Of a stretch of DNA of 64,000 nt, positions 993 to 54,690 are shown piece by piece. The stretch is from positions 124,001 through 188,000 of the forward strand of contig NZ_BOLM01000001.1 of the NCBI RefSeq assembly GCF_016861605.1, read 5' to 3'. Source of the DNA: Levilactobacillus wangkuiensis (GTDB lineage Bacteria > Bacillota > Bacilli > Lactobacillales > Lactobacillaceae). Under the pieces are notes generated by a model, which saw only the letters and a list, made by a program, of their open reading frames with translations, was not told the origin of the DNA and made no database searches. The translations under genes were made by a program, and so were the position numbers. Numbering within the stretch: position 1 is the first letter of the stretch; every line of letters begins with the position of its first letter.

Positions 993-1210
993 GCTTTATC
1001 CTGGCGGTAGCCGCCGACGTCAGCTAGGTACTCCGCCTGTGGGGACCGCCGGCAGCCTGAAAAGCGGTCTGCCGGCTTGACTTTGAACCTCACAAAAGAC
1101 GTGAGTTTCAAAGCTCATCCCGTGGTGTAGGCCGGGAAAGAACCCCGGCCAACGCCACCGACACAGGTCTGCGTACCTAGCTGCCTTACGGCTACGGTCA
1201 AGGCTAAAGC
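993..1210 (+). repeat. Structured repeat, subfamily A copy A1 (+)
   Basis: The basal stem pairs GCTTTA (993-998) with TAAAGC (1205-1210) and CAGCTAGGTAC (1021-1031) with GTACCTAGCTG (1173-1183). Inside are hairpin 1 (GCCGGCAG 1048-1055 with CTGCCGGC 1069-1076, loop ending AGCGGT), hairpin 2 (CTTTGAA 1081-1087 with TTCAAAG 1107-1113, plus CTCAC with GTGAG) and hairpin 3 (GGCCGGG 1130-1136 with CCCGGCC 1144-1150, extended by GTGGTG with CGCCAC). It starts at the base after the preceding stop codon. The 150-base spacer to the next copy holds only small hairpins, for example AGTGA/TCACT near 1339-1355. Confidence 0.8.
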
Positions 1211-1360
1211 CACCGGACTTTGGTGGTTGTTTGATTTGGTTGTGTGAGATAAAGTGTGATCGAAGTTAGGTTAACTTGAATGAGGTTGTGTATTTATATG
1301 GAATATACCATCTCACCTTTTAAAAGTTAATGAATAGCAGTGACTCGCAATCACTGATGT

Positions 1361-1573
1361 CGGGTTAAACCGGTGTGAGCCGTGAGGGCAGTGAAAATGG
1401 GCTCAGCCGGGGGATTTTCCAAGGGTTTTACTTGGAAAATGGCGACTTTGAAACACGTTTTTTGTGGTTCAAAGCGAGTCCAGAGACCGCTTTTTGGCTC
1501 TGGACGTCCTGCCCCCAGCGTTCCGGCCCATTTTCACTGCCCGGTAAGGCGCCAGCTACCGCAGCTTAACCCG
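1361..1573 (-). repeat. Structured repeat, subfamily B copy B1 (-)
   Basis: The end arms are GGGTTAA (1362-1368) and TTAACCC (1566-1572). The main stem is a perfect 17-bp match, GGGCAGTGAAAATGGGC (1386-1402) with its complement at 1526-1542. Hairpin 3 is ATTTTCCAAG/CTTGGAAAAT. Hairpin 2 is CTTTGAA.CAC/GTG.TTCAAAG. Hairpin 1 is GTCCAGAG/CTCTGGAC around a loop that reads AGCGGT on the minus strand. It lies just upstream of mtnN and is convergent with copy A1. Short ORFs inside it are by-products of the repeat. Confidence 0.8.
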
Positions 1574-1615
1574 TAAAGCAATGTAAGACAAAACGAATAG
1601 GAGTGGACACACAAT

Positions 1616-2308
1616 ATGACATTTGGTATTCTCTGCGCCATGGAAGAAGAAATTAAAGAACTGCACGAAGCCCTGGAAAACGCTCAAACCACGAGCATTC
1701 ACGGCTTGGAATTTTACCAAGGCACGATTCACGGACAATCCGTTGTCCTAGTTCGTTCCGGGATTGGTAAAGTTGAAGCTGGTTTGACGACGGCGCTGCT
1801 GATCACCCAATTTGACGTTGATATTGTCATCAACTCGGGTTCAGCTGGGGCCTTGGCGCCCGACCTGAACATCGGTGACGTCGTCGTTTCCACCGAAACG
1901 GCTTACCATGATGCCGATGCCCGGGCCTTTGGCTACGAATACGGGCAATTACCTCAACAGCCAGCGCGGTTTGAAGCGTCCAAAGAATGGGGCGAAAAGA
2001 TCGTGGCGGCCGCTGCGGATACCGGTTTGAAGACCAAGTTAGGCCTGATTGTTTCCGGTGACCAATTCTTGAACAGTCCTGAAACCATTAAGGACATCAT
2101 GGGTCACTTCCCAGATGCTTTATCTGGTGAAATGGAAGGAGCCGCTGTTGGTCAAGTGGCGCATCAATTTGACGTGCCATACGTGGTGGTTCGGGCCATG
2201 TCCGACAACGCCGACAACGATTCCGGCGTAAACTTTGACGACTTTATTATTGACGCGGGGCACCGCTCTGCACAAATGCTATTAGCCTTGTTAGCAGCAC
2301 AGAACTAA
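1616..2308 (+). CDS. mtnN: 5'-methylthioadenosine/S-adenosylhomocysteine nucleosidase
   Basis: This 230-residue cytoplasmic enzyme hydrolyses methylthioadenosine and S-adenosylhomocysteine to adenine and the ribosyl thiol, clearing products of methylation and polyamine synthesis. Family marks: N-terminal 'GILCAMEEEI' with the catalytic Glu near residue 12, 'NSGSAGAL', 'GLIVSGDQF', 'EMEGAAVGQVA', and the catalytic Asp in 'RAMSDNAD' near residue 198. Length is normal. A good ribosome site (AGGAG near 1600) precedes ATG 1616. It is 25 bases upstream of the cysteine desulfurase gene and probably co-transcribed with it. Confidence 0.93.
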   Translation: MTFGILCAMEEEIKELHEALENAQTTSIHGLEFYQGTIHGQSVVLVRSGIGKVEAGLTTALLITQFDVDIVINSGSAGALAPDLNIGDVVVSTETAYHDADARAFGYEYGQLPQQPARFEASKEWGEKIVAAAADTGLKTKLGLIVSGDQFLNSPETIKDIMGHFPDALSGEMEGAAVGQVAHQFDVPYVVVRAMSDNADNDSGVNFDDFIIDAGHRSAQMLLALLAAQN

Positions 2309-2333
2309 CTCGGCTCTTCAGGAGGTTTTTAGG

Positions 2334-3530
2334 GTGCAAGAGATTCACATTGATAACAGTAATGCCGTCCGGGAAATCTACCTGGACAACGCCGCCACCA
2401 CACCGATGGCGCCAGAGGTTTTAAATGAAATGATCGACAAGATGGCTAACGTGTACGGCAACGCCTCAACCCTGTATGGTTTGGGTCGGCAAGCACACAC
2501 GGTCATGGAAAACAGTCGCCAAGTGATTGCCAAGAGCATCAACGCGGCTCACGATGAAGAAATCATCTTCACCAGTGGGGGGAGTGAAAGTGACAACACC
2601 GCCATTACCCAAACCGCATTGACGCGTCAATCCTTGGGTAAGCACATCATTACCACCGAGATTGAACACGAGGCCGTGCTCCGGCCCTTACATGCGTTGG
2701 AGGAACAAGGCTTTGACGTGACCTATTTGCCAGTCGACGAACACGGACGCATCAGCCTGGATGACTTCAGGGCAGCCCTGCGTGATGACACGATTCTGGT
2801 GACCATCATGATGGGGAACAACGAGGTCGGCAGCCGGATGCCAATTCACGAAATTGGTGAGATTTTAAAGGATCATCAGGCATGGTTCCACACCGATGCC
2901 GTGCAGGCCTACGGGTCACTCGACATCGACGTGCAACGCGACCACATCGATATGCTCTCGACGTCCGCCCACAAGATCAATGGGCCCAAGATGATCGGTT
3001 TCCTGTACAAACGCGAAGGCGTGAACTTCCCCAGCTTGATTAAGGGTGGCGACCAGGAAGAGAAGCGGCGTGCCGGGACGGAAAATGTGCCCGCCATCGC
3101 TGGGATGGCCGTGGCCGCTAAGCTGTTGACGCCGGAAGTGAAGGCTGAAAAACGGGCCCGGTTCCACGGCTTCAAGCAACAGGTCGTTGACGGTCTGACC
3201 AAGAATGGCGTGGACTTTGCCATCAATGGCTCACTGGAAGGCGAGAACCTGGAGCACGTCTTAAACATCTGGATCAAGGGAATCTCAACCTACGTGATGC
3301 AAACGAACCTGGATTTGGCGGGCATCGCCGTTTCCGGGGGATCTGCCTGCACGGCCGGGTCAATCGAACCGTCACACGTGTTGACGGCCATGTTTGGCGC
3401 CGACAGTCCCCGCATTGCGGAGTCGATTCGGTTATCCTTTGGTTCACAAACGACGAGCGACGACATTGACGCATTTATCAAGAACGTCAGTGCCATCGTG
3501 AAGCGACTTTCAAAGAACGAGGTGAAGTAA
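2334..3530 (+). CDS. Cysteine desulfurase, NifS/IscS family
   Basis: The 398-residue PLP enzyme takes sulfur from cysteine and passes it as a persulfide. Seen: 'YLDNAATTPM' at the N-terminus, PLP lysine in 'STSAHKINGPK' (about residue 213), and the persulfide cysteine in 'SGGSACTAGS' (about residue 339). The start is GTG 2334, eight bases after AGGAGG. In lactobacilli this type sits with a DUF1831 gene and mnmA and supplies sulfur for tRNA 2-thiouridine; that role is inferred from context. Here DUF1831 follows after one base, but mnmA is about 7 kb further on. Confidence 0.9.
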   Translation: MQEIHIDNSNAVREIYLDNAATTPMAPEVLNEMIDKMANVYGNASTLYGLGRQAHTVMENSRQVIAKSINAAHDEEIIFTSGGSESDNTAITQTALTRQSLGKHIITTEIEHEAVLRPLHALEEQGFDVTYLPVDEHGRISLDDFRAALRDDTILVTIMMGNNEVGSRMPIHEIGEILKDHQAWFHTDAVQAYGSLDIDVQRDHIDMLSTSAHKINGPKMIGFLYKREGVNFPSLIKGGDQEEKRRAGTENVPAIAGMAVAAKLLTPEVKAEKRARFHGFKQQVVDGLTKNGVDFAINGSLEGENLEHVLNIWIKGISTYVMQTNLDLAGIAVSGGSACTAGSIEPSHVLTAMFGADSPRIAESIRLSFGSQTTSDDIDAFIKNVSAIVKRLSKNEVK

Positions 3531-3531
3531 C

Positions 3532-3873: not shown

Positions 3874-3933
3874 AAAGAGTGGGACGCCAGCTGCCTGGTG
3901 GTGGCCGTTTCGACCACGTAAATTGAATAGCGA

Positions 3934-3966
3934 AAAGTCTGGAATGTGTTTCCAGGCTTTTTTTGC
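3934..3966 (+). terminator. Intrinsic terminator after DUF1831 gene
   Basis: AAAGTCTGGAA, a TGTG loop, TTCCAGGCTTT and a run of T. A near-identical copy lies at 5249-5280 after the next gene (one internal difference plus longer T run). Confidence 0.85.
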
Positions 3967-4440
3967 CGTTACTGATGTCAAGGCTCTCAGCTAAGTCTAA
4001 TTGTGTCAGCCGCTTGTATTTTCGAGCGGCTTTTCGTTTCTCACCAGAAATTGGATGGTTAGGCATGTTCACCCGCCGTTTAGGGTAGTAAAACAGGTAT
4101 CGATATTACGTGTACGCTGTTCATGACTATCTTGATATTTATTTTAAAGATTGATAGTATTAAGCGTGTGAAGTATTAATACAAGATATATTTTGGGAGA
4201 GGGCGAGTTGCGGCCGACTAGGTTTATTTGTTGGGCTATTTTTGGTCAAATCTAATCAACCAACACCAAGCGTAGGCGTGATAGGCATGAGTACCAAATC
4301 GCGACAACTATTGGGTACTTAATGGTTGTCGACTGTTTTTACATGGGGCTGAATACTCGGGAGGACTACTGAGTGTTTTCGGTCAAGTTGCGGGATCCAG
4401 ATGGCATCATAAAAAATTGAGATAAAGGAAGCAGATCAAG
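3967..4440. other. Intergenic region with a second terminator and a possible pseudoknot
   Basis: Near the left is a second hairpin, AGCCGCT (4008-4014) with AGCGGCT, followed by TTTT, ending at about 4034. At 4290-4331 four short segments are ordered a-b-a'-b': AGTACC (4290-4295), CGACAAC (4302-4308), GGTACT (4314-4319) and GTTGTCG (4325-4331). This topology fits an H-type pseudoknot or two interlocked alternative hairpins, about 110 bases upstream of the secreted-protein gene. A minus-strand frame across 3827-4072 looks faintly like a helix-turn-helix but overlaps the terminators. I see no other gene. Confidence 0.5.
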
Positions 4441-5217
4441 ATGAACAAATTAATTAAGGTCGCGGTAGCAGGTGCGTTAGTTGCCGGCATAAACTTGACA
4501 TTTTTGACCGTGGATTCATCCACGGCGATGGCAAAGACGACGGCTGCTAAAGTCATCAGCTCAAAGAAAATACATAAAACGACTTATTATCCTAATGGCG
4601 GGACGCTCTATACGAGTTCGAAGCTCACGACTAAGTCAGCCAAGTCGTTTAAAAAGGTGAAAACCGCACTATATGCAACGAAGTCGGCCAGACTCAAAAG
4701 GGCGACGGGGAAGAAGGTCACGTATTACTACGTCAAAAATAAACAAGGCAGTGTTAAGGGCTGGATTGGGAGAGGCTATCTCAGTAAGACTAAGAATTTA
4801 GCGCAACGTCGTTCGGATATGCGTGGGGTGCAATCGGCTGTGCGGTGGCTGCCTAAGGTAAAGCCAACGAAAGGGATGACGACCTATGATCGGCGGGACG
4901 ATGAAAACCGACTATTTAAGATTATGAAGCCAGTCAATGCTTACAAGTCGGCAGTCTGGTATCCGGGCCTTGGGCTCCCTGACGCGATTGGTTACATGTA
5001 TGCAACGAAGCCTAAAGAATCACGAGCAATCCTGGAAGCTTACAGCGTTTTCAAGGGCCGCTTCGATAAAAAGACGAACGCGAAGTTAGCAAAGCTGAGT
5101 AAGCGCGTTGAAAAGAAAGTAAACGACTCAGATACCTCTATTCATGATGATGAGGCGTTAGATGCGAGTGAAAATCTAATCCATGTTTTAAAAAAGGCTG
5201 TGAAAGGTCTGGATTAG
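4441..5217 (+). CDS. Secreted lysine-rich protein with SH3-like surface domain
   Basis: This 258-residue protein starts with a signal peptide (MNKLIKVAVAGALVAGI..., probable cleavage after AMA near residue 31). Residues about 45-120 (TTYYPNGGTLYTSSKLTTKS ... YYYVKNKQG.VKGWIGRGYL) follow the tandem SH3-like pattern common in extracellular lactobacillus proteins. The rest is charged and K-rich, without a catalytic motif I recognise. It is monocistronic: terminators lie on both sides. The coding sequence is more A-rich than its neighbours, in line with the many lysines. A cell-surface or wall-binding role is inferred; no enzyme activity can be assigned. Confidence 0.7.
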   Translation: MNKLIKVAVAGALVAGINLTFLTVDSSTAMAKTTAAKVISSKKIHKTTYYPNGGTLYTSSKLTTKSAKSFKKVKTALYATKSARLKRATGKKVTYYYVKNKQGSVKGWIGRGYLSKTKNLAQRRSDMRGVQSAVRWLPKVKPTKGMTTYDRRDDENRLFKIMKPVNAYKSAVWYPGLGLPDAIGYMYATKPKESRAILEAYSVFKGRFDKKTNAKLAKLSKRVEKKVNDSDTSIHDDEALDASENLIHVLKKAVKGLD

Positions 5218-5248
5218 GCGTATCACCAATTGTTAAATATTTAAGCCC

Positions 5249-5280
5249 AAAGTCTGGAATGTTTTTCCAGGCTTTTTTTT
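5249..5280 (+). terminator. Intrinsic terminator after secreted-protein gene
   Basis: AAAGTCTGGAA, loop TGTTT, TTCCAGGCTTTTTTTT. It is almost identical to the terminator at 3934-3966 that precedes the same gene. Confidence 0.85.
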
Positions 5281-5305: not shown

Positions 5306-5511
5306 CTGCCGTTCCCGGCGGCAAATTCAAGATGCCCTGCTGTGGGGCACAACTTCGGCCTGGGAAGCGGTCCTACGTCTCGCCTTGAAACCTCGCAAAG
5401 CCCACGAGTTTCCAAGGTCGTCCCATGCTCTAGGCTGAGTGAGGAAACCTCAGCCAAGACCATCGACACAGCAGGCCACCTTGATTCGTCTCTGGTCACT
5501 CACACTGGCAG
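5306..5511 (+). repeat. Structured repeat, subfamily A copy A2 (+)
   Basis: The conserved core runs from CGTTCCCGGCGGC (5310) to TCTGGTCACT (5500), with CTGCC/GGCAG pairing outside it. The basal stem pairs AAATTCAAGATGCCCTGCTGTG with CACAGCAGG..CACCTTGATTCGT. Hairpin 1 is imperfect, with loop AAGCGGT; hairpin 2 is CCTTG..AAAC...GTTTCCAAGG; hairpin 3 is GGCTGAG/CTCAGCC. The left end faces the upstream gene. Confidence 0.8.
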
Positions 5512-5808: not shown

Positions 5809-6066
5809 ATTCACGGAAATAGTCAACTGAGAGCGACTATGTTAGTGACCAGAGGCGAGCCAAGGTGACCAGCTGTGTCGGTGGTCTTAGCTGAGCGATT
5901 TGTTCTCAGCTTAGAGCACGGGACGACCTTTGAGACCGCCTTGTGGCTCAAAGTCGAGGTGGAAGCCTGATTCTCAGGCTGGAACCGACCCCACAGCAGG
6001 GCATCTTGAGCTCGCCGCCGGGAACGGAAACAACATACTAGCCATCCCAGTTGACTATCCGTGAAT
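5809..6066 (-). repeat. Structured repeat, subfamily A copy A3 (-)
   Basis: The core runs from AGTGACC (5844) to GGGAACG (6026). Outside it a further long inverted repeat is specific to this copy: positions 5809-5829 (ATTCACGG...AGTCAACTG) pair with 6048-6066 (CAGTTGACTATCCGTGAAT) with only a two-base indel. The hairpin-1 loop differs from the other copies (TCAGG in place of GCGGT). The element reaches to within about 25 bases of the acetyltransferase start codon. Confidence 0.8.
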
Positions 6067-6089
6067 GTATATATTTGGGGGAATGGATT

Positions 6090-6938
6090 GTGAATGAAAT
6101 TGCGGGCGTCACCTTTTTCCAACGAGACTTGACCTATCCCACGAACCGTAATCGGCTACGGCTCGTGTACTCTAAACCGGTGAATGCGTTATTCCGGGAA
6201 CACCGGGTCTATAGCGAGATTCACTCGCGGGACAGTCGCTTTAAAATTGATCAGGACAAGATTTTCTTTGGCAATCAGGCCGTCATCGAACCTTACACGG
6301 CGTTTGGTCGGGGTGCGGCCTTTCATTCGATGGGGGCGTTCAGTTATTCCTGGAGCGTGCTCCCGGTCAACACGGTGGTCGGGCGCTACTCCTCGATTGC
6401 GGCCGGGTCGAGCGTGATGAACGTGGACCACGCGCTACACCACTTTACGACCTCGAGCCTGACGTTTGACCACTACCATCAGCCATTCAACGACTACTTG
6501 GCGGATCATCCTGAGTCTAAATTTGATAGTATCGGCCAGGATGGCATGTATCAGATTAAGCCGGTGGTGATTGGCAACGACGTGTGGATCGGCAAGGGCT
6601 GTGTGTTTGGCAACAAGGGTATCGTGGTCAACGACGGCGCAGTGGTGGCCGCGGGGTCGTTGGTGACCAAGGATGTCCCACCGTACGCGGTCGTTGGTGG
6701 CTGGCCGGCCAGGGTAATTAAGTTCCGCTTTGACTTCGCCACGATTCACGAGTTGATGGCGTTAAAATGGTGGCAGTATGACTTTGGCCAATTCGGTGAC
6801 ATCGAGGTTCAGGAGGACATTGGCCAGTTTATTGAAAAAATTCGGGCAGCGGAGGCGGCGGGGACGCTGGTGCCTTACGCGCCGGCCCCACTGACATTGG
6901 CGGACGTTCAGGCAGCGACGGAACGGGAGGAAGCTTAA
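6090..6938 (+). CDS. CatB-like O-acetyltransferase (hexapeptide fold), first of tandem pair
   Basis: About 282 residues. The middle shows left-handed beta-helix hexapeptide turns and the xenobiotic acetyltransferase pattern: '[10 protein letters not shown]', '[15 protein letters not shown]', '[11 protein letters not shown]', '[11 protein letters not shown]', '[22 protein letters not shown]'. Such enzymes move acetyl groups from acetyl-CoA to hydroxyls of sugars or antibiotics; the substrate here is unknown. I chose GTG 6090, where the GGGGGAA before it is well spaced and the product ([13 protein letters not shown]) lines up with the start of the neighbour; TTG 6051 upstream lies in a repeat arm. 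The stop touches the next ATG. Confidence 0.8.
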
Positions 6939-7778
6939 ATGACAACGGTGATCAGACACAATATCTTCTTTCAACGAGATGTGCAGTTGACCGAAAGGCC
7001 GCGGGCCATCACGGTCCCCGTTCAGCCGGCCGTCGATGATTATTTGCAGGCGCATCACATCTATACCCGCTTTAATTCGGCGGCTCCCCGGTTCAAGGTC
7101 GGGACCGACCAGATCCGCTGGGGGACGACCGCCAGCATCGAACCCTATACCACGTTTGGGCGCGGCACGGCCTTTTACACGATGGGCGCGTTCAGCTATG
7201 CCTGGAGCCAACTGCCGGTGAACACGGTGGTTGGCCGCTACACCTCGATTGGCAACCGGGTCCGTCAGCTGGGCCATAACCATCCCCTGGACCGGTTCAC
7301 CACCTCGAGTGTCAGCTTCGATGGGAAACTGGCGGCCTATCAGGATTATTTACAAACGAGTGGGCAGACGTATCGCCCCGTCGCCAATCCAGCTGCGGCG
7401 GTCCAGCCCATCGTCATCGGCAATGATGTTCTGATTGGCGAAGACGTGGTGTTTGGCAATCACGGTGTGGTGGTCAGCGATGGCGCGGTGGTCGCCGCTG
7501 GGAGTCTGGTGACGCATGACGTGCCGCCGTACGCGGTCGTGGCGGGATGGCCAGCCCGAATCATTAAGTACCGCTTTGACTTTCCGACGATTGACCGGCT
7601 GCTGGACCTACGCTGGTGGCAGTACGACTTTGGCCGCTTCGGGGAAATTGCTGCGGACGCGCGAATCGAGCCCTTTATTGCCCAGTTGGAAAATCTGGTG
7701 GCGGTGCAAGGGCTGCAGCCGTTCGACCCAGAACCGGTCACGGCTGCGACGATGCAGTCGCTGGTCAGTGAAACGTAA
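6939..7778 (+). CDS. CatB-like O-acetyltransferase, second of tandem pair
   Basis: A 279-residue paralogue of the preceding gene, colinear over its full length: 'NIFFQRDV', 'IEPYTTFGRG', '[13 protein letters not shown]', 'NHPLDRFTTSS', 'IGNDVLIGEDV', '[31 protein letters not shown]'. Here the active-site region reads NHP, the commoner form, where its twin has DHALHH. The start codon directly follows the upstream stop (TAA ATG), so the two form one transcript. Trimers are usual in the family, so mixed trimers are possible but unproven. A terminator follows. Acceptor unknown; cell-wall or exopolysaccharide sugars would be a guess. Confidence 0.8.
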   Translation: MTTVIRHNIFFQRDVQLTERPRAITVPVQPAVDDYLQAHHIYTRFNSAAPRFKVGTDQIRWGTTASIEPYTTFGRGTAFYTMGAFSYAWSQLPVNTVVGRYTSIGNRVRQLGHNHPLDRFTTSSVSFDGKLAAYQDYLQTSGQTYRPVANPAAAVQPIVIGNDVLIGEDVVFGNHGVVVSDGAVVAAGSLVTHDVPPYAVVAGWPARIIKYRFDFPTIDRLLDLRWWQYDFGRFGEIAADARIEPFIAQLENLVAVQGLQPFDPEPVTAATMQSLVSET

Positions 7779-12218: not shown

Positions 12219-12430
12219 GGTTACACGGGTCGTTGATGGGCCGCCTTACCGGGCGGAGAAAATGGGATCGGAACGCTGAGGGGAGGACGTCTAGAGCCAA
12301 AGAGCGGTCTCTAGACTCGCTTTGAGCCGAAACCCGCGTCTCAAAGTCGCCATTTTCTGAGCAAGCCACTCAGAAAATCCCACAGCTGGACCCATTTTCT
12401 CCGCCCTCACGGCTCACGTCGGTGGTAACC
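12219..12430 (+). repeat. Structured repeat, subfamily B copy B2 (+)
   Basis: The ends pair as GGTTAC (12219-12224) with GTAACC (12425-12430). The main stem is a perfect 16-bp match, GGGCGGAGAAAATGGG (12251-12266) with 12391-12406. Hairpin 1 is GTCTAGAG/CTCTAGAC with loop CCAAAGAGCGGT, hairpin 2 TTTGAG/CTCAAA, and hairpin 3 ATTTTCTGAG/CTCAGAAAAT. All arms are intact. Confidence 0.82.
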
Positions 12431-12499: not shown

Positions 12500-12700
12500 T
12501 AGAGGGGGGTGAATGGTCTAGTTAGTAAGTACACGCGGTGGGCAGGACGGCCAGAGCCAAAGGGCGGTCTCTGACCTTGCTTCTGAGCCGAAGGTCGCGT
12601 CTCAAAAACACCACTTGTCATCAGAACGTTCCGTTCTCACGACAAGTCCCACGGCTGAACATATTTTCACCATCCCTGCGGCGGAGACGGCGGTCACTGG
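12500..12700 (+). repeat. Structured repeat, subfamily B copy B3 (+), degenerate
   Basis: It keeps the B junction motif (GCGGTGGGCAGGACG), the hairpin-1 loop (CCAAAGGGCGGT) and TCCCACGGCTGAAC. Hairpin 3 is strong: ACTTGTC/GACAAGT with an inner GAACG/CGTTC. The main outer stem is eroded to GGTGAA (12509-12514) with TTCACC (12667-12672), and hairpin 1 has one mismatch. It lies in tandem with B2. The following bases to 12914 show nothing else. Confidence 0.7.
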
Positions 12701-12914: not shown

Positions 12915-13145
12915 GCTGCCGGAGCGGAGGTGAACGGTCGGTGGGGACAGCCAGAGCGAAAGGGGGACGGGGATAGAACCCTGTGTCGGTGGTGTTAGCT
13001 GGGTGATTTTCCCAGCTTTACAGCACGGGACGACCTTTGAGACGTGGGCTTCGGCTCAAAGGCGAGCCGGAGGACCGCTTCTCAGGCCGCAGGCGGTCCC
13101 CACAGGGGAGCAGTCCCTATTCACCGCAGCGGAGGCAGACCAAGA
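12915..13145 (-). repeat. Structured repeat, chimeric copy A4 (-)
   Basis: The right two thirds (from about 12978, CCTGTGTCGG, to 13110) is subfamily A: hairpin 3 GCTGGG/CCCAGC, the conserved CGGGACGACCTTTGAGAC, hairpin 2, and hairpin 1 with loop read as AAGCGGT on the minus strand. The left part (12935-12970) instead carries a subfamily-B-like stretch (GGTCGGTGGGGACAGCCAGAG, read in the plus sense). The outer flanks CTGCC...GGTGAA and TTCACC...GGCAG still pair at their ends. Confidence 0.65.
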
Positions 13146-20878: not shown

Positions 20879-20919
20879 CAATTTTTCATTCCTTTCAATT
20901 TGTGACCTAAGACTTTTTA

Positions 20920-20948
20920 AGTATAACTATTTGAAAACGCTTTTACAA
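20920..20948 (-). promoter_or_regulatory. Predicted promoter and cre-like site of the amino-acid transporter operon
   Basis: On the minus strand TTGTAA (20948-20943), 17 bases, TATACT (20925-20920). On the plus strand 20932-20947 reads TGAAAACGCTTTTACA, close to the CcpA cre consensus with one mismatch, and it overlaps the -35. Carbon catabolite repression is plausible. Confidence 0.55.
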
Positions 20949-21206
20949 CCGTCGCGTTCACAAATGCTGCGGTAAAATATTGGCGTTCCCGGCGGCGAAT
21001 TCAAAGTTCCCAGCTGTGGGGAACGCTTCCAGCCAAAGGGCGGTCTTCCAGCTCGCCTTGAAACCTCGCTGAAATTCGCGAGTTTCCAAGGTCGTCCCGT
21101 GCTCTAGGCTGAATGAAGAACTTCAGCCAAGATCACCGACACAGCAGGGAACTTTGATTCGCCTCTGGTCACTCTGATTTGCCACGATATTTACACTTGG
21201 CGGTTG
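20946..21206 (+). repeat. Structured repeat, subfamily A copy A5 (+)
   Basis: The core runs from CGTTCCCGGCGGC (20984) to TCTGGTCACT (21173). Its basal stem pairs GGCGAATTCAAAGTTCCC with GGGAACTTTGATTCGCC. Outer copy-specific arms include CAACCG (20946-20951) with CGGTTG (21201-21206). Hairpin 1 has a TCC/TCC internal mismatch. Hairpin 2 is CTCGC/GCGAG within CCTTG...CCAAGG. Hairpin 3 is GCTGAA/TTCAGC. It abuts the transporter promoter. Confidence 0.8.
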
Positions 21207-21594
21207 GCGTCTCCTGACGTATGCGAGTGTGAAAACTTTTTCAGCGACTGTGGTGTTGTGGGGGCCCATTATGGTGTGACACAACTACCGAGTCTTTTAA
21301 CAATATGAATTCACAAATAGCCTGTTCTGTTGGGACTTTTGGCTGGTGTTGTCGGTAAGCAAAGACTGGCAAATTATAAAAATCGTTCTTACTATGAAAA
21401 GTCGGTAAATTGCGGGGCACTGTACAACAAAATTCAATTGGAAAGCGGTATAGTTACAGTTGGTTCTAGTTTTTAGTAAGTGAATTGGATTCTCTGGGTG
21501 TATCAACGAGATGCCTGTTTAGCGTAATAGCTATTATTCCGATTATCCTTAAAGCCGGTTATACACTGGGGAATGAAATGATACGAGCGTAACG
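21207..21594. other. Gene-free spacer between convergent repeats A5 and A6
   Basis: About 390 A+T-rich bases. No open frame with a ribosome site on either strand; a 69-codon minus-strand frame looks random. No clear hairpin or repeat was seen. Confidence 0.5.
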
Positions 21595-21817
21595 TGACTT
21601 AGCAAGTTTTAGTGACCAGAGGCGGTTCAAGGGGCCCGGCTGTGTCGATGCTCTTGGCTGAGTGGTTTTCTCAGCTTAGAACATGGGCCGACCTTGGAGG
21701 CTGGTGAATTTCCAGGCTTCAAGTCGAGGTGGAAGACCGCTCCTCAGTCTGGAACCGTGCCCCATAGCAGGGCCCCTTGAAACCGCTGTCGGGAACGGAT
21801 GGAAACCTGTTAGGTCA
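21595..21817 (-). repeat. Structured repeat, subfamily A copy A6 (-)
   Basis: The core is 21611-21797 (AGTGACC to GGGAACG). Outer arms TGACTTAGCAAGTTT (21595-21609) and AAACCTGTTAGGTCA (21803-21817) pair in 14 of 15 positions when G-T wobbles are allowed. Hairpin 2 differs in sequence from other copies yet still pairs (CTTGAAGCCTGG with CCAGCCTCCAAG, minus strand). It lies 42 bases before the amidase start. Confidence 0.8.
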
Positions 21818-21859
21818 GGGTTAGGGTCGGATACATAAAATTTGTAGGAGGCGTTTGAT

Positions 21860-23347
21860 TTGGCAATTACGGATTGGATCGGTACACCAGCATTAACGTG
21901 GGCACAACGGGTGCGCAGCGGTGAAGTGACCAGCCAAGAGCTGATTGAACGAGCATTTACCGAGATTGAGAAACAGAACCCACAGTTGAACGCGGTCATC
22001 ACGACTAGAAAAGAGAAAGCCTTAAAGGAAGCCGCGGCGCAAACCGATAGTGGCCAACCATTTTTGGGGGTGCCGTTACTCTTGAAGGGCCTGGGCCAAC
22101 AGTTGAAGGGCGAATCAAGCACGAGTGGTTCACGCCTGTTGAAGGACAACGTCGCCACCCAGACAAACTTCTTTGTCGAAGCACTGCAACGCGCCGGATT
22201 CATTGTGATTGGTCAGACCAATTTCCCCGAATTTGGGTTTAAAAATATCACGGACGCCGACATCTATGGTGACGCCCATAACCCGTGGAATCTGGATTAC
22301 CAACCGGGGGGATCCTCAGGTGGTGCTGGGGCTGCGGTGGCCGCAGGAATTGTGCCCCTAGCTGCCGGTAGTGATGGCGGGGGATCGATTCGGATTCCGT
22401 CATCCTGGTCCGGAACCATTGGCCTGAAGCCAACGCGGGGTCGTGTTCCCGTGGGTCCTGGCGACTGGCGGTCTTGGCAGGGAGCGGCTATCGACTTCGG
22501 TCTGACCCGCTCCGTGCGAGATACTGCGGCCTTACTAGACAGTTTACAAACGATTCAACCGGCGGCCGTCTTTCAGCAGCCGTTGGAGGAGCCGGGCTTC
22601 TTAGCCCAGTTGGATCAGCCGGTTCAGCCCGGAGTCATCGGTTACACGACCGAATCCCCTGTCGGCACGCCGGTCAGTCCGGATGCCGTTAAAGCAGTCG
22701 AAGATGCCGTTGCCTTTTTGACCAGTGAAGGATTTGACGTCGAAGAGGTTCATAACCCAATTGATGGGGTGGCTTTAATGGAAAGCTACTACACCATGAA
22801 CGCTGGGGAAACGGCGGCCTTCATGGGCGAGATGCAGGATGGCATGGGCCGATTGTTAACGCGTGACGACATGGAACTCCTGACATGGGCGCTGTATCAG
22901 ACCGGACTGAATACCAGTGCGGCCGAATACAGTCAATCCCTGGGCAAATGGGATCAGGCGGCTTGGCAAATGGCGCAGTTACACGCTAAGTACCCGGTCA
23001 TCCTGACGCCAACGACCGCCTGGCCAGCACCTAAGGTTGGCGACACGTTGGTTTCTGCAGAAAATGCCGCGAAAATGGCCGACATCACGAGCTTGAAGCC
23101 AGCGGCCCAGAAGCAACTAATTTACGACCAGTGGTTGCCGGCACTGACCCGTTCGCCATTTACGCAACAGGCTAACTTAACGGGAGAACCCGCTATCAGT
23201 TTGCCGACGGCGGTCACGGCCGAGGGCTTACCACTGGGGATCCAATTTAATGCGGCAAAGGGTCAGGAAGCGGTTTTATTAAAGCTCGGGGCTTTATTCG
23301 AACGCGCAGGTAAGTTAAAATTGTTACACCAGACTATTTTAGATTAG
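21860..23347 (+). CDS. Amidase signature family enzyme
   Basis: 495 residues. The Ser-cisSer-Lys triad is visible: Lys in 'VPLLLKGLGQ', the Gly/Ser-rich signature 'PGGSSGGAGAAVAAG', and 'AAGSDGGGSIRIPSSWSG', followed by 'GLKPTRGRVP'. There is no signal peptide, so it is cytoplasmic. By length and motif spelling it resembles the 6-aminohexanoate-cyclic-dimer hydrolase-like amidases rather than GatA; the real substrate is unknown. TTG 21860 follows TAGGAGG at good distance. The OppA-like gene starts 13 bases after its stop, so amide or peptide use is suggested. Confidence 0.88.
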   Translation: MAITDWIGTPALTWAQRVRSGEVTSQELIERAFTEIEKQNPQLNAVITTRKEKALKEAAAQTDSGQPFLGVPLLLKGLGQQLKGESSTSGSRLLKDNVATQTNFFVEALQRAGFIVIGQTNFPEFGFKNITDADIYGDAHNPWNLDYQPGGSSGGAGAAVAAGIVPLAAGSDGGGSIRIPSSWSGTIGLKPTRGRVPVGPGDWRSWQGAAIDFGLTRSVRDTAALLDSLQTIQPAAVFQQPLEEPGFLAQLDQPVQPGVIGYTTESPVGTPVSPDAVKAVEDAVAFLTSEGFDVEEVHNPIDGVALMESYYTMNAGETAAFMGEMQDGMGRLLTRDDMELLTWALYQTGLNTSAAEYSQSLGKWDQAAWQMAQLHAKYPVILTPTTAWPAPKVGDTLVSAENAAKMADITSLKPAAQKQLIYDQWLPALTRSPFTQQANLTGEPAISLPTAVTAEGLPLGIQFNAAKGQEAVLLKLGALFERAGKLKLLHQTILD

Positions 23348-25010: not shown

Positions 25011-25227
25011 CTTGACCTTGGCGGGGGTCGCCTCGCCAGCCAGACACTCCGCCTGCTGTGGGGAACGCCTGCGGCCTAAGGGGCGGTCCTCCGGCTCGGT
25101 TGGAAAACGGGCTGAGAATCACCCGTTTCCCAACACGTCCCACGGGGTAAGCTGAGAAAGCCTCTCAGCTAACGCCGTCGACACAGCTGTCTGCGTGTCT
25201 GGCTGACTTCGGCTGGCAGCAAGGTTA
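25011..25227 (+). repeat. Structured repeat, subfamily A copy A7 (+)
   Basis: Arms ACCTTG/CAAGGT at the ends and CAGCCAGACAC (25037-25047) with GTGTCTGGCTG (25195-25205). Hairpin 2 is GTTGG..AAACGGG with CCCGTTT.CCCAAC, and hairpin 3 AGCTGAGA/CTCTCAGCT. Together with A1 and A11 it forms a variant without the CGTTCCC and GGTCACT ends. It begins at the base after the OppA stop codon. Confidence 0.8.
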
Positions 25228-25822: not shown

Positions 25823-26731
25823 ATGCAATTTGATGATTTACTGACAGAACAACGGAATCACCGGTCAACACATATTGATCGAGAATCCACGTTAGAAATG
25901 GTTGCGACGATCAACCGGGAGGATCACCGCGTAGCGCGCGCCGTACAAAAGCAATTACCGCAAATCGCAGCGGCAATTGATGCTGCGTACCCACTCTTTG
26001 ACCAGGGGGGCCGCTTGATTTACGTGGGGGCCGGGACTTCTGGTCGACTCGGCGTGATTGATGCGACCGAACTGCAACCGACCTATGGGCTGAGTGGCGA
26101 GCAGACCTTTGGCTTGATTGCCGGGGGCACGGACGCTTTGACCCACACAGTCAAGGCAGCAGAAGATTCGATTGAGTTGGCACAAAATGATATGGCTGGC
26201 GTTGACTTGACCGATAAGGATGTGGTGATTGCGAGTGCCGCTTCCGGCCAGACGCCTTACACGTTGGCTGCTCTGCAGTATGCGCAGGACCACGGTGCCG
26301 TGGGTATTGGGTTTTCCTGTATCGAGGGGAGCCCGCTGTCCGAACTAGCCGACTACGCCATCACGCCAGTCGTGGGACCGGAAATCATTACCGGGGCCAC
26401 GCTGTTAAAGGCCGGGACTGCCGAGAAGATGGTGCTGAACATGTTGTCCACGGGCATCATGATCAAGACGGGCAAGGTTTATCAAAACTTGATGATCAAC
26501 GTCGTGCCAACCAACGACAAGACGTTTGAACGGGCCAAGAAGATCATTGCCGAAGCGACGCAAACGTCCACGCTGGCCGCAGAACGGGCCTTGGAACGGT
26601 CAGACAACAATGTGCCGCTCGCCATCGTATTGATTGAAACGAAGGGGACCATCGCGGAGGCGAAGGCCTTGCTGGAAGCTACCGGCGGCCACGTTTCACA
26701 AGCGGTTAAATTGAACGATTCACAACATTAA
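25823..26731 (+). CDS. murQ: N-acetylmuramic acid 6-phosphate etherase
   Basis: 302 residues. It removes D-lactate from MurNAc 6-phosphate, giving GlcNAc 6-phosphate, in recycling of cell-wall sugars. Seen: N-terminal 'LLTEQRN..STHIDRESTLEM', SIS-domain 'YVGAGTSGRLGVIDATEL' with the catalytic Glu, 'DVVIASAASGQTPY', and 'NMLSTGIMIKTGKVYQNLMI'. I chose ATG 25823 (GGAGG about ten bases upstream); GTG 25793 would add ten residues not seen in the family. It has its own promoter. No MurP transporter gene lies nearby. Confidence 0.92.
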   Translation: MQFDDLLTEQRNHRSTHIDRESTLEMVATINREDHRVARAVQKQLPQIAAAIDAAYPLFDQGGRLIYVGAGTSGRLGVIDATELQPTYGLSGEQTFGLIAGGTDALTHTVKAAEDSIELAQNDMAGVDLTDKDVVIASAASGQTPYTLAALQYAQDHGAVGIGFSCIEGSPLSELADYAITPVVGPEIITGATLLKAGTAEKMVLNMLSTGIMIKTGKVYQNLMINVVPTNDKTFERAKKIIAEATQTSTLAAERALERSDNNVPLAIVLIETKGTIAEAKALLEATGGHVSQAVKLNDSQH

Positions 26732-26745
26732 AGTTGGCAAGAAAC

Positions 26746-26774
26746 TTGACTGGTCCACACCAATTCTCTATACT
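26746..26774 (+). promoter_or_regulatory. Predicted aldo-keto reductase promoter
   Basis: TTGACT (26746-26751), exact 17-base spacer, TATACT (26769-26774). Confidence 0.75.
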
Positions 26775-26809
26775 TTAACTCAGGTATAAGTGGAAAGGAA
26801 TGTGGCAGA

Positions 26810-27799
26810 ATGTATCTTGCAGATGAACACCGTTACGACAAAATGCCGGTTCGCCGGGCAGGAAATACGGGTTTCCAATTACCCGCAATTTCTTTTGGGA
26901 TGTGGCACAGTTTCGGGGAGAACGCTAACTATGGCGACACCCGCGACATTATCCTGAAGGCCTTCGACGCCGGTATTTTTAGTTTCGACTTGGCGGCAAA
27001 CTATGGTCCTGGCTCTTACGCTGCGGAAAGCCTCTTTGGTGAGGTTTTACACCGCGAATTGATGCCATACCGTGATGAGTTGGTCATCAGTAGTAAGGCT
27101 GGTTTCCATATGTGGCCTGGCCCTTATGGTCAAATGAGCTCTAGAAAGGCTTTGACGGCCTCTTTGGATCGTTCCTTGAAGGCAATGGGGTTGGATTACG
27201 TGGATATTTACTACAGCCACCGATTTGATGCCGAAACGGCTCCTGAAGAAACGGCCGTGGCCTTGGACGATTTGGTTCGTCAAGGGAAGACGCTGTACGT
27301 TGGGATTTCCAACTACACGAAACCACAAGCCGAAGCCATGATCAAGATTTTCAAGGACTTGCACACGCCATTCGTCGTGGACCAAGTTTCTTACAACATG
27401 TTGAACCAAACCGCTAATGATGATGGTTTGTTCGACATGCTGGCCCAAAACAACGCCGGGGCCATTGCTTACGGGCCACTGTCCGAAGGGTTATTGACGG
27501 ACAAGTACCTCGATGGCATTCCCGAAGACGTGGACATTCACTGGTCCAACGAATTCGTCTTGGACAATGGTCGCGACAAGATGGTCCAAAAGCTCCAAGC
27601 ACTCAACAAGATTGCGCAGAGCCGGGGCCAGAAGCTGTCCCACATGGCCTTAGCCTGGTTATTACACAACCCGGTTATCACCAGCGTCATCACGGGGGCT
27701 TCCAAGCCAGAACACTTGAACGAAAACATCAAGGCCGTTCAAAACCTGGAATTCGACCCAGAGCAATTAGCAGCAATCGATAAAATTTTAAAGGCTTAA
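26810..27799 (+). CDS. Aldo-keto reductase, YghZ/GpR-like
   Basis: 329 residues with an (alpha/beta)8 barrel. The catalytic Asp-Tyr-Lys-His set is visible as 'FDLAANYG', 'ISSKAGF' and 'YYSHRFD'; the NADPH side reads 'ITGASKPEHLNENI'. The N-terminus 'YDKMPVRRAGNTGFQLPAISFG' is typical of the YghZ group (L-glyceraldehyde 3-phosphate or methylglyoxal reductases). The exact substrate is not settled by sequence. It is monocistronic with a consensus-like promoter and strong terminator. Codon use is biased toward favoured codons, suggesting good expression. Confidence 0.88.
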   Translation: MYLADEHRYDKMPVRRAGNTGFQLPAISFGMWHSFGENANYGDTRDIILKAFDAGIFSFDLAANYGPGSYAAESLFGEVLHRELMPYRDELVISSKAGFHMWPGPYGQMSSRKALTASLDRSLKAMGLDYVDIYYSHRFDAETAPEETAVALDDLVRQGKTLYVGISNYTKPQAEAMIKIFKDLHTPFVVDQVSYNMLNQTANDDGLFDMLAQNNAGAIAYGPLSEGLLTDKYLDGIPEDVDIHWSNEFVLDNGRDKMVQKLQALNKIAQSRGQKLSHMALAWLLHNPVITSVITGASKPEHLNENIKAVQNLEFDPEQLAAIDKILKA

Positions 27800-28211: not shown

Positions 28212-28456
28212 GGCTAGTGAAATGGACGTGCAAGTCAGAGTGACCAGAGGCGGGCCAAGGTGTCCAGCTGTGTCGGTGGTCTTAGCTGAGTGAGTTTCTC
28301 AGCTTAGCCCACGGGACGACCTTGGAAACTCGCGAACCACAGCGAGGTTTCAAGGCGAGGCCCCAGACCGCCCCTCAGGCTGGGGCCGTTCCCCACAGCA
28401 GGGCACCTTGAGCCCGCCGGCGGGAACGGAATTGATGACTGTTCATTTCAGTAGCC
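28212..28456 (-). repeat. Structured repeat, subfamily A copy A9 (-)
   Basis: The core is 28239-28428. Outer arms GGCTAGTGAAATGGAC (28212-28227) and GTTCATTTCAGTAGCC (28441-28456) pair in 15 of 16 positions with one wobble. Hairpin 1 is a perfect 8-bp stem here (GGCCCCAG/CTGGGGCC, minus strand). It ends 40 bases before the rbsR start. Confidence 0.82.
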
Positions 28457-33115: not shown

Positions 33116-33352
33116 GTTGAAAATAAATGGTCGATGTCAGCGGACCAGAGGCGGATCAAGGCGGCCAGCTGTGTCGGTGGTCTTAACTGAGTGATTTTCT
33201 CAGTTTAGAGCACCGGACGACCTTTGAGACTGCGGGTTATCAGGCTCAAAGTCGAGGTGGAAGACCGCTCCTCAGGCTGGAACCGTTCCCCACAGCAGGG
33301 CGCCTTGAATCCGCCGTCGGGGAGCGAAAGATAGGACCAATTTGTTTTCAAC
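33116..33352 (-). repeat. Structured repeat, subfamily A copy A10 (-)
   Basis: The core is 33139-33326. Outer arms GTTGAAAATAAATGGTC (33116-33132) and GACCAATTTGTTTTCAAC (33335-33352) match with one mismatch and one extra base; pairing continues outward (TTGT..CGTTG with CAACG..ACAAG). Hairpin 3 is CTGAG/CTCAG. It ends about 80 bases before the NlpC/P60 gene. Confidence 0.8.
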
Positions 33353-48317: not shown

Positions 48318-48512
48318 TTGGCCACCTACGGCTTCCAGGTGTTCCGCCTGCTGTGGGGAACGGTGCCGGCCTGAGAAGCGGTCCGGCGCCTCGCTTTGAA
48401 ACCTCGCTGAGGCACGCGAGTTTCCAAAGTCGTCCCGTGATGTAAGACCGGGGAGAGCACCCGGTCAACATCACCGACACAGCCGTCTCCACACCTGGCT
48501 TCCTCCGGCTCT
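48318..48512 (+). repeat. Structured repeat, subfamily A copy A11 (+)
   Basis: Stem CCAGGTGT (48335-48342) with ACACCTGG (48491-48498), flanked by further partial pairing (GGCTTCC with GGCTTCCTCCGGCTC on opposite strands). Hairpin 1 is GGTGCCGG/CCGGCGCC (one G-T), hairpin 2 CTTTGAAACCTCGC/GCGAGTTTCCAAAG, and hairpin 3 GACCGGG/CCCGGTC. Confidence 0.8.
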
Positions 48513-51113: not shown

Positions 51114-51133
51114 ATGCGGCTGGCCGATACGGA

Positions 51134-51162
51134 TGGACTTTACCAGCTATTGACGCTACAAT
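51134..51162 (+). promoter_or_regulatory. Predicted typA promoter
   Basis: TGGACT (51134-51139), 17 bases, TACAAT (51157-51162). Confidence 0.55.
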
Positions 51163-51231
51163 AAGCGTACTTACAGACGTAAGCATGCCGTGATCCATCT
51201 AATTCACCAAGCACGAAAGGAAGAAATACAC

Positions 51232-53076: not shown

Positions 53077-53097
53077 TTTAAACCTTAAATAAATTTT

Positions 53098-53145
53098 AAC
53101 GGTAAGACCCAGTGAGGGAACTCACGGGCCTTACCGTTTTTTTTG
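53098..53145 (+). terminator. typA terminator
   Basis: ACGGTAAG..CCC.GTGAG pairs with CTCAC.GG..CTTACCGT, loop GGAA, then T8. Confidence 0.92.
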
Positions 53146-53167
53146 TGCCAAAATCGTGAGTGAGCTA

Positions 53168-53176
53168 TGCTATAAT
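53168..53176 (+). promoter_or_regulatory. Predicted ftsW extended -10
   Basis: TGC-TATAAT (53168-53176); no good -35, as usual with an extended -10. Confidence 0.6.
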
Positions 53177-53228
53177 AAGAGCATTCGATTACCGCTAGAC
53201 GGCGGTAGACTTGGAGCGAATCAATCGT

Positions 53229-54383
53229 ATGCGAAAGTTAAAATATTTAGATTATTGGTTACTGGTACCTTATTTGATTTTGAGTGTCTTCGGGATTGTG
53301 ATGGTGTATTCCGCCAGTGCCGACATCGGCACGCAAAATGGGGGGAGTCCGGGTAGTTATTTAATTAAGCAGGCTCTGTATGTCTTCCTGGGGTTAGCTA
53401 TTCTGGTGTTCATGATTATGATGAACATCAATAAGTTACGGAATAAACGACTGTTGAAGATCGCCGGGTACTTGGCCTACGGGGCGCTGTTCTTCCTGCT
53501 GGTTAGGGGCGAAACCGTCAATGGGGCCGCTGGCTGGATCAGTCTGGGACCTATCAACATTCAACCGGCCGAATTCATTAAGTTCTATATCATTATTTGG
53601 TTATCAAACGTGATAACGAACCGCCAGGATGATTTAGAGGAATACAGTTGGTGGTCGACGATGCAAAAGCCACTGTTAGTTTGCGCAATTATTTTGGCCT
53701 TGATTATGAAGCAACCCGATTTAGGTGGGGCGGCAATCAACGGGGCTATCATGTTTGTCCTGTTCTTAAGTAGCGGTTTTGCCTCACGCTTGGCTAAGGT
53801 TATTTTTACCGGGATCATTGCTTTAGGTATTTTCGTGCTTATGCCGGCGCTTTCCTGGTTAGCAACATCGTCCGCAGGAAAAGGGTCGTATCAGTTGCAA
53901 CGAATCGTGGCCTTCATGAATCCCTTTGAGCATGCTCAGGGCGTGGGGCAACAGCTGGTCAATTCCTACTACGCGATTAGTAATGGCGGGATTTTTGGTG
54001 TCGGTTGGGGAAATAGTATCCAAAAGACGGGGTACCTGCCCGAACCCAACACTGACTTCATCATGGCCATCTTGACCGAAGAGTTAGGCTTGATCACGGC
54101 GCTGGCCGTTGTAACGTTACTCTTTGTGATTATCTTACGGACCGTGCTGGTTGGTGTTCGGAGCAACTCGACCTATCAGTCGTTAGTGTGTTACGGGGCG
54201 GCGACTTATTTGGCCGTGCAGACGTCCTTTAACTTGGGTGGGGTTCTAGGATTTCTTCCAATCACTGGGGTCACGTTCCCATTCATCAGTTACGGGGGGT
54301 CAAGTACCTGGACTCTGGCGCTGGTGATGGGGGTCGTCATGAACATTAGTGCCCGGCAAAAGCGTTACCGGATGACAAACTAG
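53229..54383 (+). CDS. ftsW: FtsW/RodA/SpoVE family peptidoglycan polymerase
   Basis: 384 residues, about ten membrane segments. SEDS family marks: 'IVMVYSASA' in the first segment, 'NGAAGWISLGPINIQPAEFIK', 'KQPDLGGAAI', 'YYAISNGGIFGVGWGNSIQK', 'PNTDFIMAILTEELGL' and 'GVTFPFISYGGSS', given in short parts. It polymerises lipid II at the septum (FtsW) or side wall (RodA); neighbours and N-terminus favour FtsW. ATG 53229 gives the family start 'MRKLKYLDYW'; TTG 53211 would add six residues. Confidence 0.9.
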   Translation: MRKLKYLDYWLLVPYLILSVFGIVMVYSASADIGTQNGGSPGSYLIKQALYVFLGLAILVFMIMMNINKLRNKRLLKIAGYLAYGALFFLLVRGETVNGAAGWISLGPINIQPAEFIKFYIIIWLSNVITNRQDDLEEYSWWSTMQKPLLVCAIILALIMKQPDLGGAAINGAIMFVLFLSSGFASRLAKVIFTGIIALGIFVLMPALSWLATSSAGKGSYQLQRIVAFMNPFEHAQGVGQQLVNSYYAISNGGIFGVGWGNSIQKTGYLPEPNTDFIMAILTEELGLITALAVVTLLFVIILRTVLVGVRSNSTYQSLVCYGAATYLAVQTSFNLGGVLGFLPITGVTFPFISYGGSSTWTLALVMGVVMNISARQKRYRMTN

Positions 54384-54502
54384 GTTGTGAGGTATCAGCA
54401 TTGGGCAACTAATTTATTCCTGATGTCATTAGAGATAACGCAAATTTTTTCTGAGTCGTAAATGATTACTTAGAGTGATATCAAAGCTCTGTATGTGGTG
54501 AA

Positions 54503-54690
54503 CTAGTGTTAGCCGCAGGGCTGTTGAAAATGGGCTTAGCCGTGGGAATTCCCTTAACGGTGATAGGGAATTGGTATCTTTGAAACGCGTTTTTCAGCGG
54601 TTCAAAGTAAGTCTGGAGACCGTTCTTTGGCTCCAGACGGCCGCCCACCGCGTTCCGGTCCATTTTCAACAGCCCGGAGGCGGACTGGTT
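54503..54690 (-). repeat. Structured repeat, subfamily B copy B5 (-)
   Basis: The main stem GGGCTGTTGAAAATGG (54518-54533) pairs perfectly with 54660-54675, with outer TGAACTAGT-type pairing at the ends. Hairpin 3 is AATTCCC/GGGAATT, hairpin 2 CTTTGAA.CGC/GCG.TTCAAAG, and hairpin 1 GTCTGGAG/CTCCAGAC. It ends 28 bases before ylbG. Confidence 0.82.

What the first reader, a model, noticed from the sequence alone, without database searches (positions are those of the whole stretch)
993..54690. Sixteen-copy family of large cloverleaf-like intergenic repeats
Sixteen intergenic elements (A1-A11, B1-B5 in the feature list), about 185-260 nt each, share one plan: a long basal stem closing hairpin 1 (loop ending in GCGGT), hairpin 2 (CTTTGAA-type arms) and a variable hairpin 3. 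They make up roughly one copy per 4 kb and none lies in a gene. They encode no protein and lack simple terminal inverted repeats of a transposon. I know of no lactobacillus RNA or MITE family that fits this plan, but novelty cannot be judged without a search.
Basis: partly seen in the sequence, partly recalled or inferred. Interest (0 to 1): 0.9.

Follow-up and report, generated by a model that had tools for sequence, protein, structure and literature searches.

The report
Lactobacillaceae-wide cloverleaf DNA repeat family
The sixteen folded repeats are real members of a family, not found in Rfam, of cloverleaf-shaped elements between genes that occur in hundreds of copies in Levilactobacillus and in many related lactic acid bacteria, mostly pointing one way relative to the neighbouring gene, by a mechanism still unknown.

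Summary
Confirmed and enlarged. One covariance model built from the repeats finds exactly 16 copies in the window. Rfam has no match. Extrapolation gives about 700 copies per genome (28 in 124 contiguous kb). The host is a Levilactobacillus. The family rings in 34 of 35 genus genomes, in 45 of 201 Lactobacillaceae genomes and 10 of 40 genera, and in no other family among 295 genomes of the order. One copy found no BLASTN match in plasmid or phage records.

New facts: (1) pairing is kept mainly by Watson-Crick double changes. (2) In the copy-rich genomes orientation follows gene borders, not transcription: 130 of 138 own copies have the model 5' end nearer a gene; neighbours are inward 59 times, outward 0. 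Low-copy genomes show no such polarity (8 of 16). (3) Palindromes continue as locus-specific arms, some into the gene. (4) Orthologous copies are often replaced in place. (5) The genome has no Y1/RAYT transposase.

Best reading: a REPIN-like but unrelated DNA-hairpin element. An RNA on the opposite strand is not excluded.

The parts
1033..1170 (+). short A-type copy (core); inward pair with 1403-1521
   Evidence: R1 126 bits
1403..1521 (-). B-type copy (core)
   Evidence: R1 44.8 bits, E 3.5e-9
5308..5505 (+). full A copy; absent at the orthologous place in G017 (L. mulengensis), present in G015 (L. lanxiensis)
5839..6028 (-). full A copy, inward partner of 5308-5505, next to the ORF starting at 6051
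12273..12389 (+). B-type copy (core)
   Evidence: R1 47.3 bits
12535..12655 (+). B-type copy (core), the weakest of the window
   Evidence: R1 27.4 bits, E 1.4e-4
12978..13109 (-). short A-type copy, inward to the B copy at 12535-12655
   Evidence: R1 122 bits
20982..21178 (+). full A copy in a divergent intergenic region
   Evidence: orthologous copy in G015 95% identical
21606..21799 (-). full A copy, inward partner of 20982-21178
25052..25190 (+). short A-type copy
   Evidence: R1 123.6 bits
25365..25555 (-). full A copy, inward partner of 25052-25190
28234..28430 (-). full A copy, single, between a conserved promoter-like TATAAT and the start of a LacI-family gene; no copy at this place in G006
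33134..33327 (-). full A copy, single
48347..48486 (+). short A-type copy
   Evidence: R1 120.7 bits
48785..48906 (-). B-type copy, inward partner of 48347-48486
   Evidence: R1 44.3 bits
54539..54651 (-). B-type copy, single, next to the ORF starting at 54719
   Evidence: R1 29.5 bits, E 3.9e-5

Best explanation
The repeats are a family of non-coding, non-autonomous DNA elements that act as folded single strands or cruciforms. Each is a four-way hairpin module. The module often occurs as an inverted doublet (module, spacer, inverted module), in the way REP sequences form BIME-1 doublets.

Shown here: the family, its structure, its mostly Watson-Crick covariation, its polarity at gene borders in copy-rich genomes, the inward doublets, the locus-specific palindromic arms, the in-place replacement of copies, and its restriction to Lactobacillaceae among the genomes sampled.

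Inferred: during replication or repair the module folds. DNA synthesis then switches template, either within the palindrome (perfecting stems and adding an inverted copy of the gene-side flank on the intergenic side) or onto another copy (ectopic conversion that swaps the whole module or single hairpins). Many sites are stable over species splits while their sequences turn over. What first inserts new copies, and why the 5' end faces the gene, is not known.
For: Structure and covariation: 3,215 Watson-Crick, 19 G-T, 77 A-C and 81 other of 3,392 cells on 64 own copies. On 46 sequences 230 cells differ on both sides and 5 on one side by G-U on the model strand. On 33 matches from several genera: 1,101 / 16 G-T / 33 A-C / 68 other.

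Orthologs: in 20 comparisons above 90% identity (12 with G015, 8 with G017) 15 of 15 double changes are Watson-Crick to Watson-Crick, several of them transversions, against 44 single changes; three double changes of 28234-28430 are counted in both species.

Blind to transcription: of the 130 copies with the 5' end nearer a gene, 68 face a stop and 62 a start. Tandem, convergent and divergent intergenic regions carry copies alike (55 of 156, 16 of 46, 19 of 46; p=0.73). Wobble type does not follow the UTR strand (7 GT:35 AC in 25 copies near starts, 5:29 in 27 near stops, p=1; the other 12 copies of the alignment left out).

Doublets: neighbours in one intergenic region are inward 30+14+10+5 times, outward 0, same-direction 19. 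All six inward pairs of the G029 stretches align as A module, diverged spacer and B-side module, the B side degenerate in one.

Arms: a copy's own flanks pair better than flanks of different copies, p=1.8e-15, 21 of 72 above the null 95%.

Replacement: leaving out 5 comparisons in a tandem array, 11 of 30 orthologous copies are 71-87% identical and outranked by paralogs, while the rest of such regions is about 89%.
Against: Polarity is not universal: in the low-copy genomes G190, G119, G145, G168 (genus g20) and G227 (g15) only 8 of 16 copies have the 5' end nearer a gene, and three 3' ends lie within 100 nt of one (counted from its list); in g24 it is 15 of 21, not significant.

No mobilising gene was found: Y1 transposase is absent from the genome, and 10 single genes enclosed by inward copies, from a list cut at 12 pairs, show no transposase domain. 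No clean insertion with a target duplication was proven; the empty sites are ambiguous.

On the strand opposite to the model A-C cells read as G-U, so 77 G-U against 19 A-C leaves room for an RNA there; three positions supply 40 of the 77. The elements are not significantly more conserved than the rest of their intergenic regions. Composition does not explain polarity in general. Members of a doublet are not each other's closest relatives. The stricter mirror test is weak (9 of 72).
Confidence: 0.5

Rival explanations
1. A structured cis- or trans-acting RNA, read from the strand opposite to the model (mRNA leader for copies at gene starts).
For: Strong four-helix covariation. Opposite-strand wobble pairs exceed mismatches 77 to 19. 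One copy read in detail (28234-28430) lies between a conserved promoter-like motif and a start codon.
Against: Copies face stops as often as starts and occur in convergent as in divergent regions. Wobble type is unrelated to the strand expected to be transcribed. Double changes far outnumber one-sided changes on the model strand (230 to 5). No Rfam family. Ten neighbouring genes tested are unrelated in function or without a Pfam match.
Confidence: 0.2
2. An ordinary MITE family mobilised in trans by a transposase not recognised here; polarity and doublets reflect its target preference.
For: Hundreds of dispersed copies. Inverted ends. Intergenic regions with copies measure 541 nt apart from the copies, against 158 nt without (medians); four such regions are 116-162 nt long in G004 and G001 where these could be aligned. 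Presence/absence differences between close species.
Against: No autonomous copy seen; no BLASTN match of one copy in plasmid or phage records. Interiors between copies are largely unshared. No target duplication demonstrated. Structure is kept after insertion.
Confidence: 0.2
3. One-way transcription insulators: RNA polymerase leaving a gene on either strand meets the model orientation and is stopped, whereas polymerase entering a gene is not.
For: Fits the polarity at both starts and stops and the inward doublets of the copy-rich genomes.
Against: No polarity in low-copy genomes (8 of 16). No T-run at the 3' end of the consensus. In the few cases I read by eye an ordinary terminator stands beside the copy. 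No marked excess at gene ends (68 to 62).
Confidence: 0.1

Closest known systems
REP / BIME-1 with RAYT transposases (PMC2817692, passages seen)
   Same: High copy number, intergenic, palindromic, inverted doublets with unrelated inter-repeat segments, palindrome kept by complementary changes.
   Different: REPs are 20-40 bp (PMC4666352, passages seen); here a four-way module of about 190 nt. The paper reports RAYT (Y1) genes obligately flanked by two inverted REPs and proposes them as the mobilisers; this genome has no Y1 match. I know of no REP report of border polarity and locus-specific arms (recall, not searched).
ERIC/IRU of enterobacteria (recalled, not looked up)
   Same: Intergenic imperfect palindrome of 100-200 nt.
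   Different: No sequence or branched-structure relation tested; different phylum.
BOX and RUP of pneumococcus, Correia/NEMIS of Neisseria (recalled, not looked up)
   Same: Modular or MITE-like intergenic repeats of 100-200 nt.
   Different: Not compared by sequence or structure here beyond the empty Rfam search.

Membership tests
REP/BIME with RAYT | A Y1 (PF01797) RAYT gene in the genome, flanked by two inverted copies | tested here: not met
   0 matches in the own genome; 12 of 35 genus genomes lack it, among them element-rich ones (G018, G019, G033), while element-poor G012 and G025 have it
REP/BIME with RAYT | Inverted doublets of palindromic units | tested here: met
   59 inward, 0 outward, 19 same-direction neighbours in four sets
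REP/BIME with RAYT | Unit of 20-40 bp | tested here: not met
   136-position core with several helices
MITE | Terminal inverted repeats | tested here: met
   Basal stem P1, variable but complementary
MITE | Target-site duplication at clean insertions | tested here: inconclusive
   Candidate TTAAA direct repeat around 28234-28430 by eye; empty sites ambiguous
MITE | Autonomous partner with the same ends | tested here: inconclusive
   None among 10 genes enclosed by inward copies, from a list cut at 12; only 464 kb of 3.14 Mb examined
Known structured RNA (Rfam 15) | Match to a family | tested here: not met
   0 at gathering score in the window; 0 at E<=5 in 20900-21900
Structured RNA in general | Wobble pairs as tolerated intermediates | tested here: inconclusive
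   Model strand 19 of 3,392 cells, opposite strand 77 of 3,392; 11 tRNAs give 14 of 246, a small control whose program may list only pairs it accepts
Structured RNA in general | Transcribed and folded in the cell | not testable with these tools
   No expression data available

The most novel reading that the evidence does not exclude
A class of border elements unlike known bacterial repeats: four-way DNA hairpins that, once amplified, line gene borders irrespective of transcription, grow locus-specific palindromic arms that can reach into coding sequence, and are rewritten in place by a dedicated or replication-linked single-strand copying process.
Probability: 0.3. Interest if true: 0.88.

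Novelty: new variant of a known kind. Interest (0 to 1): 0.7.

Why it matters
A repeat family that would fill roughly 4% of this genome (about 700 copies by extrapolation, times about 190 nt; my estimate, an upper one because B copies are shorter) and rings in ten genera is not in Rfam, and my searches of an open-access library showed no description of it. Its border polarity in copy-rich genomes and its mostly Watson-Crick evolution make two open questions testable: how bacterial intergenic palindromes keep their pairing, and what spreads them when no RAYT is present. It also bears on why these intergenic regions are several times longer than in relatives.

Tried and rejected
RAYT/Y1 mobilisation: rejected for this genome.

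A as the end of one larger homologous element: 46% of the bases between own copies and the next gene match another such interior, judged from the profile mostly where further copies or about 60 nt of outer stem lie; the rest is unshared. In G029 the doublet is recognisable with a diverged spacer.

Doublets made by inverted duplication: members of 30 own pairs rank 2 to 140 of 145 in mutual similarity.

Polarity caused by a GC-rich gene side: holds in the own genome (100 of 137), not in g1 relatives (16 of 38), g24 (10 of 23) or g38 (5 of 18).

Polarity as a rule for every genome: not so, 8 of 16 in low-copy genomes.

Strong sequence conservation after insertion: element medians 0.919/0.909 against 0.891/0.889 for the rest of the region, not significant (11 and 9 regions). 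Regions without copies are better conserved than either (0.958/0.935; 21 and 27 regions).

UTR-strand dependence of wobble: none.

A stricter mirror test beyond the outer stem gave 9 of 72 at or above the null 99%, against 3 for a direct-repeat control. The anchored test is the stronger one.

tRNA wobble control: the first parse failed; the second gave 11 tRNAs, and its zero A-C count may come from the program listing only accepted pairs.

Low-copy genomes as a place to find a mobiliser: neighbourhoods were laid out but their genes were not identified.

Literature: eight searches. Searches showed, in their listings (8 of 12 papers listed), no title or abstract start describing the family; one search looked for one RNA survey by title. 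That survey's DOI, given from memory, is not held. Of two papers only passages were seen.

Full report
WHAT WAS CHECKED. A profile built from four window copies and refined on the own genome gave 124 matches in 464 kb (the window plus 20 stretches, most of them chosen near earlier hits), 88 of them above 60 bits. The 73 best full copies share a consensus of about 185 nt running from CGTTCCCGGCGG to CCTCTGGTCACT. Many copies are enclosed in a further outer stem with GGTGAAAA on the left and TTTTCCCA/TTTTCACC on the right. RNAalifold and a covariation scan agree on a basal stem (P1) and three hairpins (P2, P3, P4). A covariance model of the core, R1, finds 146 copies in the same 464 kb, 16 of them in the window. 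In the whole genome all 150 scored of 1,450 candidates match, a cap and not a count. On 124 contiguous kb that include the window there are 28 copies, about 708 per genome if uniform.

RANGE. The host genus is Levilactobacillus. By equal contig lengths G015 is L. lanxiensis, G017 L. mulengensis, G006 L. cerevisiae, G004 L. brevis ATCC 14869 and G001 L. acidifarinae. BLASTN with one A copy rings in 27 of 35 genus genomes, the own one included. R1 rings at E<=1e-3 in 7 of the other 8 (all but G025; G012 only twice, best E 1.7e-4). In an even sample of the family R1 rings in 45 of 201 genomes and 10 of 40 genera at E<=1e-4, with stricter filters and 16 candidates scored per genome. In an even sample of the order, 12 of 295 genomes ring, all in the same family. 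BLASTN of one copy found nothing in 72,556 plasmid and 50,697 phage records. Rfam gave nothing.

STRUCTURE AND HOW IT CHANGES. On 64 own copies the chosen pairs give 3,215 Watson-Crick, 19 G-T, 77 A-C and 81 other cells. On 46 sequences including eight from other species, 230 cells differ on both sides and 5 on one side by G-U. One pair of columns has 33 A-T and 31 G-C and nothing else. An RNA read on the model strand should show more G-U intermediates. The opposite strand shows 77, of which 40 sit at three positions, so an RNA on that strand is not excluded. Orthologous copies with more than 90% identity (12 in G015, 8 in G017) show 15 double changes, all Watson-Crick to Watson-Crick, and 44 single changes; the two species share the same reference, and three double changes occur in both. 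From these counts about one double change would be expected by chance (my estimate). The wobble type does not depend on whether the copy lies at a gene start or a gene end.

IN-PLACE REPLACEMENT. Of 35 orthologous comparisons, 15 are 70-87% identical and the other 20 are 91-98%. Five comparisons belong to a tandem array whose size differs between species, so their orthology is unsure. Without them 11 of 30 are low, and in those the ortholog ranks 12th to 101st among copies (ranks are inflated by one, because the set holds the copy itself). In the regions that could be aligned the rest stays near 89%. In 33134-33327 mainly P3 and P4 changed and P1 hardly. Ectopic conversion, or loss and re-insertion at the same spot, explains this; I cannot tell which.

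POSITION AND POLARITY. No copy of 146 overlaps a called gene by more than 60 nt (genes from my own codon-based ORF caller, which misses some small genes, as one search showed by eye). In the own genome 130 of 138 copies have the model 5' end nearer a gene (p=1.6e-29; 8 copies at stretch ends left out). The median distance is 95 nt on that side and about 540 nt on the other, and no 3' end lies within 100 nt of a gene. The gene border is a stop in 68 and a start in 62 of the 130. Relatives: 34 of 37 in three other Levilactobacillus genomes, 15 of 18 in genus g38, 15 of 21 in g24 (p=0.08). Against this, in five low-copy genomes of g20 and g15 only 8 of 16. Polarity therefore belongs to the copy-rich genomes. 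Neighbours in one intergenic region are inward 30 times, outward never, and same-direction 19 times in the own genome; inward 14, 10 and 5 times and outward never in the other sets. Copies are blind to the type of intergenic region (p=0.73).

ARMS INTO THE GENE. Extending the palindrome outward from the A borders, a copy's own two flanks pair much better than flanks taken from different copies (median score 13 against 2.5, p=1.8e-15; 21 of 72 above the null 95%). In the strongest cases beside a stop codon the arms reach 57-112 nt, beyond the stop into coding sequence. Example: the stop region GCGCAAATCTAG of one gene is mirrored on the far side of the copy. In one locus a G to A change in the gene end is matched in the mirrored arm of the other species; other loci in the same call show unmatched differences.

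GROWTH OF INTERGENIC REGIONS. Regions with copies measure 541 nt apart from the copies, regions without 158 nt (medians). Several regions without copies keep their length to within some ten bases across relatives (for example 133, 314, 111 nt), while four regions that carry copies here are 116-162 nt in G004 and G001 where these could be aligned. What the extra unique sequence is remains open.

DOUBLETS. All six inward pairs of the G029 stretches align as A module, diverged spacer and B-side module; the B side of the sixth is degenerate. The two members of own doublets are not close to each other, so doublets are not simple inverted duplications.

WHAT IT MOST RESEMBLES. The passages seen of the RAYT paper (PMC2817692) describe inverted REP doublets with unrelated inter-REP sequence and palindromes kept by complementary mutations, which is close in behaviour. 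Membership fails on the RAYT gene (absent here) and on the short unit. I therefore call it REPIN-like in behaviour, not a REP.

JUDGEMENT. Shown: the family, structure, range, polarity in copy-rich genomes, doublets, arms and replacement. Inferred: DNA-level copying as their cause. Unknown: the enzyme that places new copies, the reason for the polarity, and any benefit to the host.

Noticed in passing
window 3929-3964 and 5244-5279: Two terminator-like hairpins, 92% identical, flank the gene at 4441-5217; G015 lacks window 3875-5271, as if the gene was lost between them.
   Followed up: partly
window 6051-6938 and 6939-7778: Adjacent genes share a 244-nt stretch at 73% identity (6559-6802, 7405-7648), which looks like a tandem duplication; the first has no Pfam match at E<=1e-5.
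   Followed up: no
window 26731-26810: A 78-nt intergenic region that carries 584-826 nt in G030, G026, G003 and G002, with A/B-type elements (by profile in three, by eye in G030) between the stop codon and the conserved promoter-like motif.
   Followed up: partly
L010:4029-4713: Tandem array of three copies in the own genome, one in G015, two in G017: copy-number change between close species.
   Followed up: partly
L047 (G030) at the place of window 26731-26810: A B-type copy that seems to lack P3 and P4 compared with G003, as if the hairpins had been lost together (read by eye).
   Followed up: no
L033:303-960 (G017): Two short A-type copies where the own genome has one (25052-25190).
   Followed up: no
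L154-L165 (g20 and g15 genomes): Low-copy genomes hold the element without border polarity (8 of 16); several copies lie beside what looks like the same 517-aa gene in G190, G168 and G145.
   Followed up: partly
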